Source: a virus. Taken from it: a DNA stretch of 39,816 nt. The notes under the pieces were generated by a model. It was given only the letters and a program-made list of their open reading frames with translations, made no database searches and had not been told where the DNA came from. The position numbers and the translations under genes were made by a program. Below are positions 1-39,816 of this stretch, piece by piece (within the stretch, counting starts at the first letter, position 1; each line of letters starts with the position of its first letter). The stretch lies in the IMG/VR virus record IMGVR_UViG_3300020581_000020, positions 1-39,816 of that record. One strand, written 5' to 3'.

Positions 1-147
1 GGAATTGGCGGTTGCGGGGGGCGAAGGGCGAGTGCGACTTATGCAGTTAGCCCAGGCATTGGGCACTAATGATGGCAGTAACGCCTATAACCACCTTGCT
101 TTTGCTCTCCGCGAAGCGTGGTTGCAAAGGAATGCCAAGGATGCCAG
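1..147. repeat. Left copy of the terminal overlap of a circular genome
   Basis: This stretch matches bases 39670-39816 at 143 of 147 positions. The four differences are at bases 11, 16, 17 and 21, and everything from base 22 onward is identical. Joining the two copies keeps one reading frame open through the junction (39593 to 166). This is what a circular or circularly permuted phage genome looks like after assembly. The G-rich mismatches beside the contig end look like read-end error rather than biology. Confidence 0.93.
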
Positions 148-5850: not shown

Positions 5851-6717
5851 TTGAAGATTCAGCATCTTTGGCGAAGCGGGATTCTGACGTGGGACGACGG
5901 GGACGCTTTGTGTATCTCGGTTGTCTTTACGTGGCATCTGCCGCTTGCCCGAAGGTATGCAGAGTCTATGTCTCATCGGCGCGTGCGGATCGGCGGTCCT
6001 GCGGTCGGGTTGATGCCTGAGTTTTTCTTCGGTTGCAAGGCTGAGATTGGCGGCTCGCTTCCGGGTGTGCTTCAACGCTGGAATCCGTTAGCGACTCGCA
6101 CTTCTCTTGGCTGTCCGCGCAAGTGCAAGTTCTGCGGAGTTCCTAAAGTGGCGGCTCAAGAAGCGATTGAGTTGTCCGGTTTTCCGATTATGCGCTTCGA
6201 GGACTGGCCGGATTTGCCCGTCATCGCGGACGACAATTTGCTTCTCGCTGGAAAGACTCAGGCAGAGCGGATCGCACACTTTGACAAGGTTTGCGACCGC
6301 CTGGAAAAGCATGAATGGTGCGATTTTAATCAGGGCACCGATGCACGCGCTGTGACCGAGCATCACGCCGAACGGCTAGCGCGGCTCAAGAAACCGATGA
6401 TTCGCATGGCGCTCGATTCAATGAGTTATGTGGCGGCGTGGGACGAAGCTCTCGACAAACTTCTCAGGGCAGGCGTGGCGAAGCGGAATATTCGGACCTA
6501 CTGCATCATGGCGTTCGGAACGTCGCCGGATGAGTGCTGGAAAACCTGCGAACACGTCGAGAGTCGCGGAATCAAACCGCTGCCGATGTGGTTCCATGAA
6601 CTCGATGCTCTAGAGCGCAACATCGTGACGCCGCGACAGGCAGAACTCGGCTGGAATGATTACGAACGCCGCCGACTAATGCAGTGGTTCTATCAGCACA
6701 AAGAAGCAGTTGTGTAA
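5851..6717 (+). CDS. Radical SAM enzyme
   Basis: The 288-aa protein begins at TTG 5851, directly after the previous stop, with GAGGGGAG upstream. It has CPRKCKFC (Cys88, Cys92, Cys95), the CxxxCxxC cluster that binds a 4Fe-4S centre and S-adenosylmethionine. Other conserved-looking parts are DDNLLLA near 127-133, FNQGTDAR near 159-166, and LPMWFHELDALE with a C-terminal LMQWFY. These suggest a phage-associated radical SAM subgroup of unknown substrate. It has no B12 domain and no second cluster. It could modify nucleic acid, protein or a small molecule. Confidence 0.88.
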   Translation: MKIQHLWRSGILTWDDGDALCISVVFTWHLPLARRYAESMSHRRVRIGGPAVGLMPEFFFGCKAEIGGSLPGVLQRWNPLATRTSLGCPRKCKFCGVPKVAAQEAIELSGFPIMRFEDWPDLPVIADDNLLLAGKTQAERIAHFDKVCDRLEKHEWCDFNQGTDARAVTEHHAERLARLKKPMIRMALDSMSYVAAWDEALDKLLRAGVAKRNIRTYCIMAFGTSPDECWKTCEHVESRGIKPLPMWFHELDALERNIVTPRQAELGWNDYERRRLMQWFYQHKEAVV

Positions 6718-22168: not shown

Positions 22169-22375
22169 ATGGCAGGACAATATCCGAAGTGCAAATACAA
22201 CGCGACTAAGCCCCCGGTCGTGGTTTCAAGCGAAGCTGAAGAAATGGCCCTTGGCAAAGGCTGGTTTGACCTCCCTGGATTAACCAATCGAATACCCGAA
22301 ACGGAAACACCGACACCATCCCAGAAACAGGCAAAACCTGCAGAGGAAACCAAGAGTCCAACTGATTTGAAATGA
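22169..22375 (+). CDS. Small structural-region protein, 68 aa
   Basis: Short protein with YPKCKYN near the start, LGKGWFDLPG in the middle and a Pro/Glu/Thr-rich tail. Similar small proteins occur beside phage coat genes, with unknown role. Its last codons overlap the minus-strand tRNA-like element. Confidence 0.72.
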   Translation: MAGQYPKCKYNATKPPVVVSSEAEEMALGKGWFDLPGLTNRIPETETPTPSQKQAKPAEETKSPTDLK

Positions 22376-22595
22376 AGGCCAGTGCTCTGACCACGCGGGG
22401 AGGCGAACCCCTTCCGAGCTATAGTACGCTGCCGATGAGCAATCGTCTCAAGTCGTACATGCTGGCTCTCATCGTAGGACCACTATCCGGTACCGTCGAT
22501 AGTTCCCCTGATCGGAATACCAACAAACCAAAAGCATCCACTCATCGGCGCATGTTTTGTACTAGGGGGAGTCGAACCCCCGACCTCTGGCCGCC
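22371..22595 (-). tRNA. Candidate circularly permuted tRNA-like RNA
   Basis: Read on the minus strand, the 3' half comes first: anticodon-stem strand GGCCAG (22592-22587), 5-nt variable loop AGGTC, T-arm of five G-C pairs with the canonical loop TTCGACT (22581-22565), 3' acceptor strand TAGTACA (22564-22558) and A73. A spacer closed by a 9-bp stem (22549-22541 with 22439-22431) follows. The 5' half then gives acceptor CGTACTA (22428-22422), TA, D-stem GCTC/GAGC (22419-22416, 22387-22384) and anticodon strand CTGGCC (22382-22377). All stems pair across the permutation; base 1 to 72 is C-A. The D-loop carries a 20-nt hairpin. No CCA is encoded. The anticodon cannot be fixed because the loop is where the ends lie. 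Confidence 0.62.
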
Positions 22596-22601
22596 ATTTG
22601 G

Positions 22602-22610
22602 AATATAGCA
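22602..22610 (-). promoter_or_regulatory. Extended -10 element for the tRNA-like RNA
   Basis: On the minus strand the sequence TGC-TATATT forms an extended -10 (TGn plus a near-consensus hexamer). No good -35 is seen. Transcription from it would start about seven bases on, at the anticodon-stem edge of the permuted RNA. Confidence 0.4.
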
Positions 22611-22611
22611 C

Positions 22612-23349
22612 ATGACTGGACAAGATCTCATCAATAGTTCCCTCCGTCTCGTAGGGGCGCTGGCCTCTGGGGAATCGCCTTCTGCGGCAGAATCGCAGGA
22701 CTGCCTGCTTGTGGGGAATCAGATGATGGATTCCTTTCAGGCAGAGCGGTTGATGATCTTTGCCATCCAGATGAACGAATTCCCGCTAACCACAGGCCAG
22801 CAGACTTACACGCTCGGAATCGGCGGCAATTTCAACATCGCCCGGCCGCCCAAGATTCAGCGTATGGGCATTGTCAGCCTCAACAATCCCGCACAACCCC
22901 TGGAATTTCCGCTCGAATATTTGACGACAGAGCAATGGGCGGCAATCCCGGTCAAACTGATTCAGAGTTCGCTGCCACAAAAGGTTTACGATGATGGAGC
23001 CTTTCCTCTGCGGAATCTGAATTTCTGGTGCATCCCGAATGTCGCAGTCAACACGCGGATTTATAGCTGGACACTCTTGACCGCGTTTCCTGACTTCACT
23101 ACCGACATCCAATACCCTCCCGGTTATGCTGAATGCTTACGCTATAACCTAGCTCTACGGCTGATGGCGGAGTTCCCTGGCAATCTTTCAACTGCACCGC
23201 TGGTTATCCAGTTGGCAACAGAATCGAAAGCCCGCGTCAAATCCAGCAACACGCCTCTGCTCGATTCCTACTGTGATCGCATGTTGGTTGACCCCGGAAA
23301 GCAGTTATACAACTGGCTTACAGATCAGCCTGCAGGGAGGGGATACTAA
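22612..23349 (+). CDS. P22 gp4-like tail-accessory / head-completion protein
   Basis: The 245-aa product begins with the pattern of the P22 gp4-type adaptor: LINSSLRLVGALASGESPSA near residues 5-24, GNQMMDSFQAERLMIFAI at about 37-54 and YPPGYAECLRYNLALRLMAEF in the second half. In P22 this protein binds under the portal ring and starts tail assembly. Order after coat and before gp10-like fits. The ATG overlaps the promoter region of the minus-strand RNA. Confidence 0.85.
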   Translation: MTGQDLINSSLRLVGALASGESPSAAESQDCLLVGNQMMDSFQAERLMIFAIQMNEFPLTTGQQTYTLGIGGNFNIARPPKIQRMGIVSLNNPAQPLEFPLEYLTTEQWAAIPVKLIQSSLPQKVYDDGAFPLRNLNFWCIPNVAVNTRIYSWTLLTAFPDFTTDIQYPPGYAECLRYNLALRLMAEFPGNLSTAPLVIQLATESKARVKSSNTPLLDSYCDRMLVDPGKQLYNWLTDQPAGRGY

Positions 23350-39596: not shown

Positions 39597-39816
39597 CAAC
39601 GTTACTTGAAAAGGCATTGGCGGTTAAGGTCGGTCCCCGCGCGGGAAGGGTTCCATCTGCGGAAGTTGTGGAATTGGCGATTGCTTGGGCCGAAGGGCGA
39701 GTGCGACTTATGCAGTTAGCCCAGGCATTGGGCACTAATGATGGCAGTAACGCCTATAACCACCTTGCTTTTGCTCTCCGCGAAGCGTGGTTGCAAAGGA
39801 ATGCCAAGGATGCCAG
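39593..39816 (+). CDS. Small putative DNA-binding protein, N-terminal part (continues at 1)
   Basis: The ATG overlaps the regulator stop (ATGA). The frame runs out at the end of the window and continues at 2-166, giving about 80 residues. This copy of the overlap gives VPSAEVVELAIAWAEGRV, which is more natural than the left-end copy. No known family; likely a second small DNA-binding protein. Confidence 0.75.
   Translation, partial: MTTLLEKALAVKVGPRAGRVPSAEVVELAIAWAEGRVRLMQLAQALGTNDGSNAYNHLAFALREAWLQRNAKDA
39670..39816. repeat. Right copy of the terminal overlap
   Basis: Matches bases 1-147 as described for the left copy. It supports closing the sequence into a circle of about 39,669 bp. 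Confidence 0.93.

What the first reader, a model, noticed from the sequence alone, without database searches (positions are those of the whole stretch)
22371..22595. Circularly permuted tRNA-like RNA on the opposite strand of a phage head operon
On the minus strand, every tRNA stem pairs only if the 3' half (anticodon 3' strand, variable loop, T-arm, 3' acceptor) is read before the 5' half (5' acceptor, D-arm, anticodon 5' strand). Acceptor pairs GTACTA/TAGTAC, anticodon pairs CTGGCC/GGCCAG, D-stem GCTC/GAGC and the canonical T-loop TTCGACT are all present. A ~130-nt spacer joins old 3' and 5' ends and is closed by a 9-bp inverted repeat, like the pre-RNA of permuted genes. Permuted tRNA genes are known in some algae and an archaeon, and permuted tmRNA genes in alphaproteobacteria; I know of no well-described phage tRNA of this kind. 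The D-loop also holds an extra hairpin, and base 1-72 is a C-A mismatch.
Basis: partly seen in the sequence, partly recalled or inferred. Interest (0 to 1): 0.92.

Follow-up and report, generated by a model that had tools for sequence, protein, structure and literature searches.

The report
Phage Y-RNA-like permuted tRNA mimic
A bacterial virus carries, backwards between two of its structural genes, what looks like a small RNA shaped like a tRNA that was cut open at its anticodon and sealed at its business end; this is the known shape of bacterial 'Y RNAs' rather than a working tRNA gene in scrambled order, and it adds an unusual variant to that poorly understood class.

Summary
In detail: on the minus strand, 22607-22372, two tRNA halves lie in reversed order with all stems able to pair. 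The interpretation as a permuted tRNA gene that is re-joined into a tRNA is not the best one. The same order of parts (closing stem, T-arm, acceptor stem sealed by a loop, U8-A9, D-arm, closing stem) is the architecture of bacterial Y RNAs (YrlA), which I found beside Ro60/Rsr genes in phages and Streptomyces. One true relative exists in another phage (L249): same opening at the anticodon, same T-arm-like hairpin inserted in the D-loop after GGAA, a -10 box 9-10 nt before the closing stem in both, and acceptor sealed by only 3 nt, so no tRNA 3' end could form. Between the two, 9 of 26 pairs changed on both sides and stayed paired. The window element differs from known YrlA: it fails the Rfam YrlA model and a model of 13 YrlAs, its phage has no Rsr gene, its acceptor cap is a 129-nt hairpin, and its D-loop holds a second T-arm-like hairpin. 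I call it a new variant of the capped, permuted tRNA-mimic kind. Expression is unshown; a 78-codon open frame covers it on the other strand; a tRNA relic is not fully excluded.

The parts
22602..22607 (-). -10-like box TATATT with upstream TG (extended -10, TGC-TATATT), 9 nt before the closing stem
   Evidence: Consensus scan: 1 promoter-like site, 0.4 expected in the 800-nt region. L249 has TATAAT 10 nt before its closing stem.
22587..22592 (-). GGCCAG: 3' strand of the anticodon stem, used here as the 5' strand of the closing stem
   Evidence: Pairs 6/6 with 22382-22377; L249 GCCGG/CCGGC with one two-sided change
22565..22581 (-). T-arm GGGGG-TTCGACT-CCCCC, preceded by variable loop AGGTC 22586-22582
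   Evidence: matched by Rfam tRNA and tmRNA models; two two-sided changes versus L249
22558..22564 (-). acceptor 3' strand TAGTACA
   Evidence: Pairs 6/7 with 22428-22422; five two-sided changes in this helix versus L249
22429..22557 (-). 129-nt cap joining the two acceptor strands; folds as a long imperfect hairpin closed by GCCGATGAG/CTCATCGGC
   Evidence: Fold z -2.5; 4 of 200 shuffles at least as stable
22422..22428 (-). acceptor 5' strand CGTACTA, followed by U8-A9 (22421-22420)
22384..22419 (-). D-arm GCTC...GAGC with a 28-nt D-loop that holds GGAA and a T-arm-like hairpin GGGGTTCGCCTCCCC (22411-22397)
   Evidence: The same insertion at the same place occurs in L249 (GGAA-CTGGGTTCGATTCCCAG), the only other true case found in the viral contigs
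22377..22382 (-). CTGGCC: 5' strand of the anticodon stem, used here as the 3' strand of the closing stem
22372..22608 (+). 78-codon open frame on the opposite strand: ATG overlaps the upstream stop (ATGA), TAG ends 3 nt before the next ATG (22612)
   Evidence: Codon usage outside the phage's gene range (only 1.9% of gene pieces score as low); no relative in phages

Best explanation
The element encodes, on the minus strand, a small structured RNA that mimics a tRNA but never becomes one. Transcription would start just after the -10 box at 22607-22602. The RNA's own ends form the closing stem (the former anticodon stem). Above it sit the T-arm, an acceptor stem sealed by a hairpin cap, and a D-arm, so the RNA presents the tRNA elbow and acceptor helix with no anticodon loop and no free CCA end. 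This is the working plan of bacterial Y RNAs (YrlA), in which the closing stem is held by Ro60/Rsr and the tRNA-like part contacts PNPase or tRNA-binding enzymes. I propose that this RNA likewise works by tRNA mimicry, as a tether or decoy for a tRNA-binding host protein. Shown: the layout, its relative in another phage, the compensatory changes, and the YrlA comparison. Inferred: transcription, start and end points, the protein partner and the function.
For: Layout and pairing. Relative L249 with the same permutation point, the same D-loop hairpin after GGAA and a 3-nt sealed acceptor. 26 pairs, 96% standard, 9 two-sided compensatory changes; structures slid by 1-3 columns give 0-1. A model made from L249 alone hits the window in exactly two places, the two halves in the right order (E 8e-4 and 0.01). 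-10 boxes 9 and 10 nt before the closing stem in both. YrlAs next to rsr genes have the same order of parts, and the Y RNA structure 6CU1 superposes on tRNA as a circular permutation (PMC11472068). Further sealed permuted RNAs without an ARAGORN tRNA lie in other phage contigs. The tRNA-like fold is within 0.6 kcal/mol of the minimum.
Against: No expression data. One true relative only. Rfam YrlA gives no match, and a model of 13 YrlAs matches only the T-arm (14.9 bits). No TROVE/Rsr gene in the window or in the 7.8-kb L249 fragment. Whole-element folds are not unusually stable (z -1.2 and -0.25 for the window, -0.28 for L249). The extension of the closing stem is not significant (P 0.07). The plus strand is open for 78 codons.
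Confidence: 0.55

Rival explanations
1. Relic: a piece of a tandem tRNA locus (3' half of one Arg-type tRNA, spacer, 5' half of an identical neighbour) inserted between two phage genes, tolerated because the plus strand stays open; the RNA has no function.
For: 78-codon open frame that begins at the upstream stop (ATGA) and ends 3 nt before the next ATG. Most relatives of this phage have no gap there. C1-A72 mismatch and D-loop insertion.
Against: L249 has the same D-loop hairpin and the same opening, but a 3-nt sealed acceptor that cannot come from two neighbouring tRNA genes. No donor tRNA with this 5' acceptor and anticodon stem in viral or genome contigs (exact patterns only). Both break points fall in the anticodon loop.
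Confidence: 0.2
2. Permuted tRNA gene as in red algae: the precursor is cut at the acceptor ends by RNase P and a 3' nuclease, and the anticodon ends are ligated to give a working tRNA (anticodon UCA or similar).
For: All tRNA stems and U8, A9, GG, U33 present. With the D-loop insert removed and a loop closed by hand, ARAGORN calls a tRNA.
Against: C1-A72 mismatch, no encoded CCA, D-loop with a 15-nt hairpin that ARAGORN does not read correctly, a structured cap. The relative has a 3-nt cap, which leaves no mature 3' end. Bacteria lack the bulge-helix-bulge splicing used for permuted tRNAs (established knowledge).
Confidence: 0.08
3. A true YrlA (Rsr-binding Y RNA) of divergent sequence that uses the host's Rsr.
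For: Same architecture; many phages carry YrlA-type RNAs.
Against: Fails the YrlA models. The Rsr-side consensus (GGNTACTTC...CCGAC) is not found. It is opened at the anticodon loop, whereas the rsr-linked YrlAs collected here keep an anticodon hairpin and open between the D-arm and that hairpin. No Rsr in the phage.
Confidence: 0.1
4. The insert is a protein-coding gene (78 aa) and the tRNA likeness is incidental or historical.
For: Open frame with perfect ATGA coupling and a stop 3 nt before the next gene.
Against: Codon usage below 98% of gene pieces, no relatives in phages, and part of the frame is the antisense of a T-arm.
Confidence: 0.07

Closest known systems
Bacterial Y RNA YrlA (Rfam RF02553; structure 6CU1)
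   Same: Order T-arm, sealed acceptor stem, U8-A9, D-arm, closed by a stem made of the RNA's two ends; a circularly permuted tRNA likeness; found in phages.
   Different: No match to the Rfam model or to a 13-sequence YrlA model; no Rsr gene in this phage; opened at the anticodon loop; D-loop carries a T-arm-like hairpin; cap of 129 nt instead of 3-9 nt.
Circularly permuted tRNA genes (red and green algae, one archaeon)
   Same: 3' half precedes 5' half; opening in the anticodon loop.
   Different: Those are cut and re-joined into tRNAs by tRNA-splicing enzymes; here the acceptor is sealed (3 nt in L249) and no CCA or splice motif is seen.
Permuted (two-piece) tmRNA (Rfam RF04321)
   Same: Permuted order with T-arm first.
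   Different: No tag frame or tmRNA domains; 8.5 bits against a 47-bit cut-off, from the T-arm only.

Membership tests
YrlA / bacterial Y RNA | Order: T-arm, sealed acceptor, D-arm, closed by a stem of the two RNA ends | tested here: met
YrlA / bacterial Y RNA | Match to the YrlA covariance model | tested here: not met
   RF02553 no match at E 10; model R1 of 13 YrlAs hits only the T-arm, 14.9 bits
YrlA / bacterial Y RNA | Ro60/Rsr (TROVE) gene nearby or in the genome | tested here: not met
   PF05731 absent from the window; the host is unknown and could supply it
YrlA / bacterial Y RNA | Rsr-binding bulged stem | tested here: inconclusive
   Closing stem can be extended with small internal loops, but not beyond chance (P 0.07); consensus not seen by eye
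YrlA / bacterial Y RNA | Binds Rsr or PNPase | not testable with these tools
   needs biochemistry
Permuted tRNA gene | Halves in reversed order, all tRNA stems pairing | tested here: met
Permuted tRNA gene | Acceptor ends that can be cut free to give a mature 3' end | tested here: not met
   The relative's cap is 3 nt; in the window C1-A72 mismatch and no CCA
Permuted tRNA gene | Readable tRNA body with a 7-nt anticodon loop | tested here: inconclusive
   ARAGORN gives the expected cloverleaf only after the D-loop insert is removed and a loop is supplied
Permuted tmRNA (RF04321) | Match to the family model | tested here: not met
   8.5 bits, T-arm only

The most novel reading that the evidence does not exclude
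A new family of phage RNAs: sealed, permuted tRNA mimics independent of Rsr, opened at the anticodon and carrying a second T-arm-like hairpin in the D-loop, acting as decoys for a host tRNA-binding or tRNA-cutting protein (for example a defence nuclease).
Probability: 0.3. Interest if true: 0.75.

Novelty: new variant of a known kind. Interest (0 to 1): 0.55.

Why it matters
It links an odd phage sequence to the Y RNA architecture and suggests that sealed, permuted tRNA mimics are commoner and more varied in phages than annotation shows: standard tRNA finders and the Rfam YrlA model miss them, and several lie in phage records where no Rsr gene was found. A phage RNA that presents a tRNA elbow without an anticodon or acceptor end is an obvious candidate for titrating tRNA-directed host enzymes, which is directly testable.

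Tried and rejected
Exact search for the T-arm plus acceptor in viral contigs: none. Search for a donor tRNA by acceptor plus anticodon stem: none in viral or genome contigs. L009's gap at the same site, with a T-loop-like string, is not a tRNA by Rfam. The upstream TGTGCTATA can pair 7/7 with the acceptor 3' strand and gives a 55-nt mini-tRNA alignment; I read it as the -10 region, but it could be a remnant of a 5' acceptor end. Closing-stem extension: not significant. Attachment-site idea: no integrase was found among the ORFs scanned and the site lies inside the head operon, so it was set aside. Group I intron and other Rfam families: none. 396 Actinomycetota genomes with model R2: none. A first guess that the gap is non-coding on both strands was wrong: the plus strand is open.

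Full report
OBSERVATION. On the minus strand of 22607-22372 the sequence reads: -10 box, closing stem strand GGCCAG, AGGTC, T-arm, TAGTACA, a 129-nt spacer, CGTACTA, TA, D-arm, A, CTGGCC. The acceptor, anticodon and D stems pair only in this permuted order. ARAGORN and Rfam at gathering scores call nothing. Rfam's tRNA model scores the 3' half at 28.1 bits. Pairing alone would occur in about 0.26% of shuffled strands (49 of 18,790); the consensus letters of both halves (TTCGACT, TAGCTC, GGTCAGAGC, CTTC) make chance negligible.

SETTING. The window is a virus record of 39.8 kb with a portal protein, scaffold and major capsid protein of the P22 coat-protein kind. The element lies between a small gene ending at 22375 and a gene starting at 22612. 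Of 80 phages found through the capsid gene, those that carry the downstream gene mostly have it directly abutting or overlapping its neighbour; none has this element. So it is an insertion in a packed operon. Its plus strand is open for 78 codons, from an ATG overlapping the upstream stop to a stop 3 nt before the next gene, but codon usage is unlike the phage's genes and no relative is known. The open frame may be what made the insertion tolerable.

WHAT IT RESEMBLES. The order T-arm, acceptor stem closed by a loop, U8-A9, D-arm, all held by a stem made of the RNA's two ends, is that of bacterial Y RNAs. Literature: YrlA has a long stem pairing its 5' and 3' ends plus D, T and acceptor arms, and tethers Rsr (Ro60) to PNPase (PMC8394870); its crystal structure 6CU1 superposes on tRNA as a circular permutation (PMC11472068); Y RNAs have been reported in mycobacteriophages (Chen 2014, cited in PMC12282133). 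I checked this on sequence. Phage records with a TROVE gene and Streptomyces rsr loci carry YrlAs with exactly this order. A set of 13 folds to a permuted cloverleaf with 20 of 27 pairs showing two-sided changes. That set also keeps an anticodon hairpin and opens between the D-arm and that hairpin, whereas the window element opens in the anticodon loop.

IT IS NOT A STANDARD YRLA. Rfam YrlA gives no match in the window. The 13-sequence model finds only the T-arm. There is no TROVE gene.

A TRUE RELATIVE. A search of the viral contigs for a D-loop that contains a T-arm-like hairpin gave one real case, L249. It reads GCCGG AGGTC GCAGGTTCGAGTCCTGC TCTGTTT-CAA-AAACAGG TA GCTC GGAA CTGGGTTCGATTCCCAG CGCGGTA GAGC G CCGGC. 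It shares with the window the permutation point, the variable loop AGGTC, the GGAA and hairpin in the D-loop, and a -10 box (TATAAT, 1549-1554) 10 nt before the closing stem, against TATATT and 9 nt in the window. It lies in a different kind of place, in an intergenic gap upstream of the terminase genes and on the same strand as those genes. In the two-sequence alignment 26 pairs are 96% standard, with 9 two-sided changes; sliding the partner by 1-3 columns gives 0-1. A model from L249 alone, which knows nothing of the window, finds exactly two hits there, the two halves in the right order. The D-loop hairpin is therefore a shared family trait and not decay, and the 3-nt cap of L249 rules out a free tRNA 3' end in that member.

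MORE OF THE KIND. The two-member model and the L249 model also bring up other sealed permuted RNAs with no overlapping ARAGORN tRNA in phage contigs (L146, L112, L160, L162, L095, L118, and L254 in a TROVE-bearing record). For L112, L146, L160, L162 and L118 no TROVE gene was found in the records held, some of which may be fragments. L162 also looks opened at the anticodon loop (my reading of the sequence). Tandem tRNA genes score up to about 28 bits with these models, so scores alone do not prove membership.

MECHANISM. Most likely the RNA is a tRNA mimic held together by its ends, presenting an elbow and an acceptor-like helix but no anticodon loop and no CCA. By analogy with YrlA it would tether or occupy a tRNA-binding protein: Rsr or PNPase of the host, a tRNA-modifying enzyme, or a tRNA-directed nuclease. 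The layout and its conservation across two phages are shown; expression and partner are inferred. The cap in the window is a structured 129-nt hairpin (z -2.5) where L249 has 3 nt. It may be an accessory domain or a later insertion.

RIVALS. A relic of tandem tRNAs remains possible for the window copy, because its plus strand is open and it has a C1-A72 mismatch, but it does not explain L249. A spliced permuted tRNA is unlikely. A coding gene is unlikely on codon usage.

LIMITS. One true relative, no expression data, overall folding energies not exceptional, extension of the closing stem not significant, and metagenome contigs not searched.

Noticed in passing
L007:7030-7138 (minus): A relative of this phage carries a 109-nt tRNA-like gene (Rfam tRNA 42 bits) on the strand opposite its head/tail genes, with about 35 extra nucleotides around the anticodon arm; ARAGORN does not call it.
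   Followed up: partly
L162:1370-1461, L160:2465-2560, L112:5367-5453, L146:9158-9256 (plus): Sealed permuted tRNA-like RNAs in phage records where no TROVE gene was found; some records may be fragments; unannotated by ARAGORN.
   Followed up: partly
L088:10024-10108 (= L214:1501-1616), L216:1501-1565, L215:1501-1614, L254:3398-3492, L177:2001-2122: Phage YrlA-type RNAs; the three scored against Rfam's YrlA model (L214, L215, L216) fall below its cut-off; several lie in records with an rsr (TROVE) gene.
   Followed up: partly
MW802488.1 19406-19506 and five sister Xanthomonas phages; many Mycobacterium phages: Unannotated stretches similar to the L254 YrlA.
   Followed up: no
L256:1697-1733, L257, L258, L261: A long perfect hairpin enclosing a T-loop (GCTCCCGGTGGTGGTTCGAGTCCATCACCGGGAGC) repeated in several related phage contigs, outside any tRNA.
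   Followed up: no
window 1-147 and 39670-39816: The last 100 bases recur exactly at 48-147 and the ends look like imperfect terminal repeats, so the record is probably a complete, circularly permuted genome.
   Followed up: no
window 5851-6717: Radical-SAM-domain protein in the early region.
   Followed up: no
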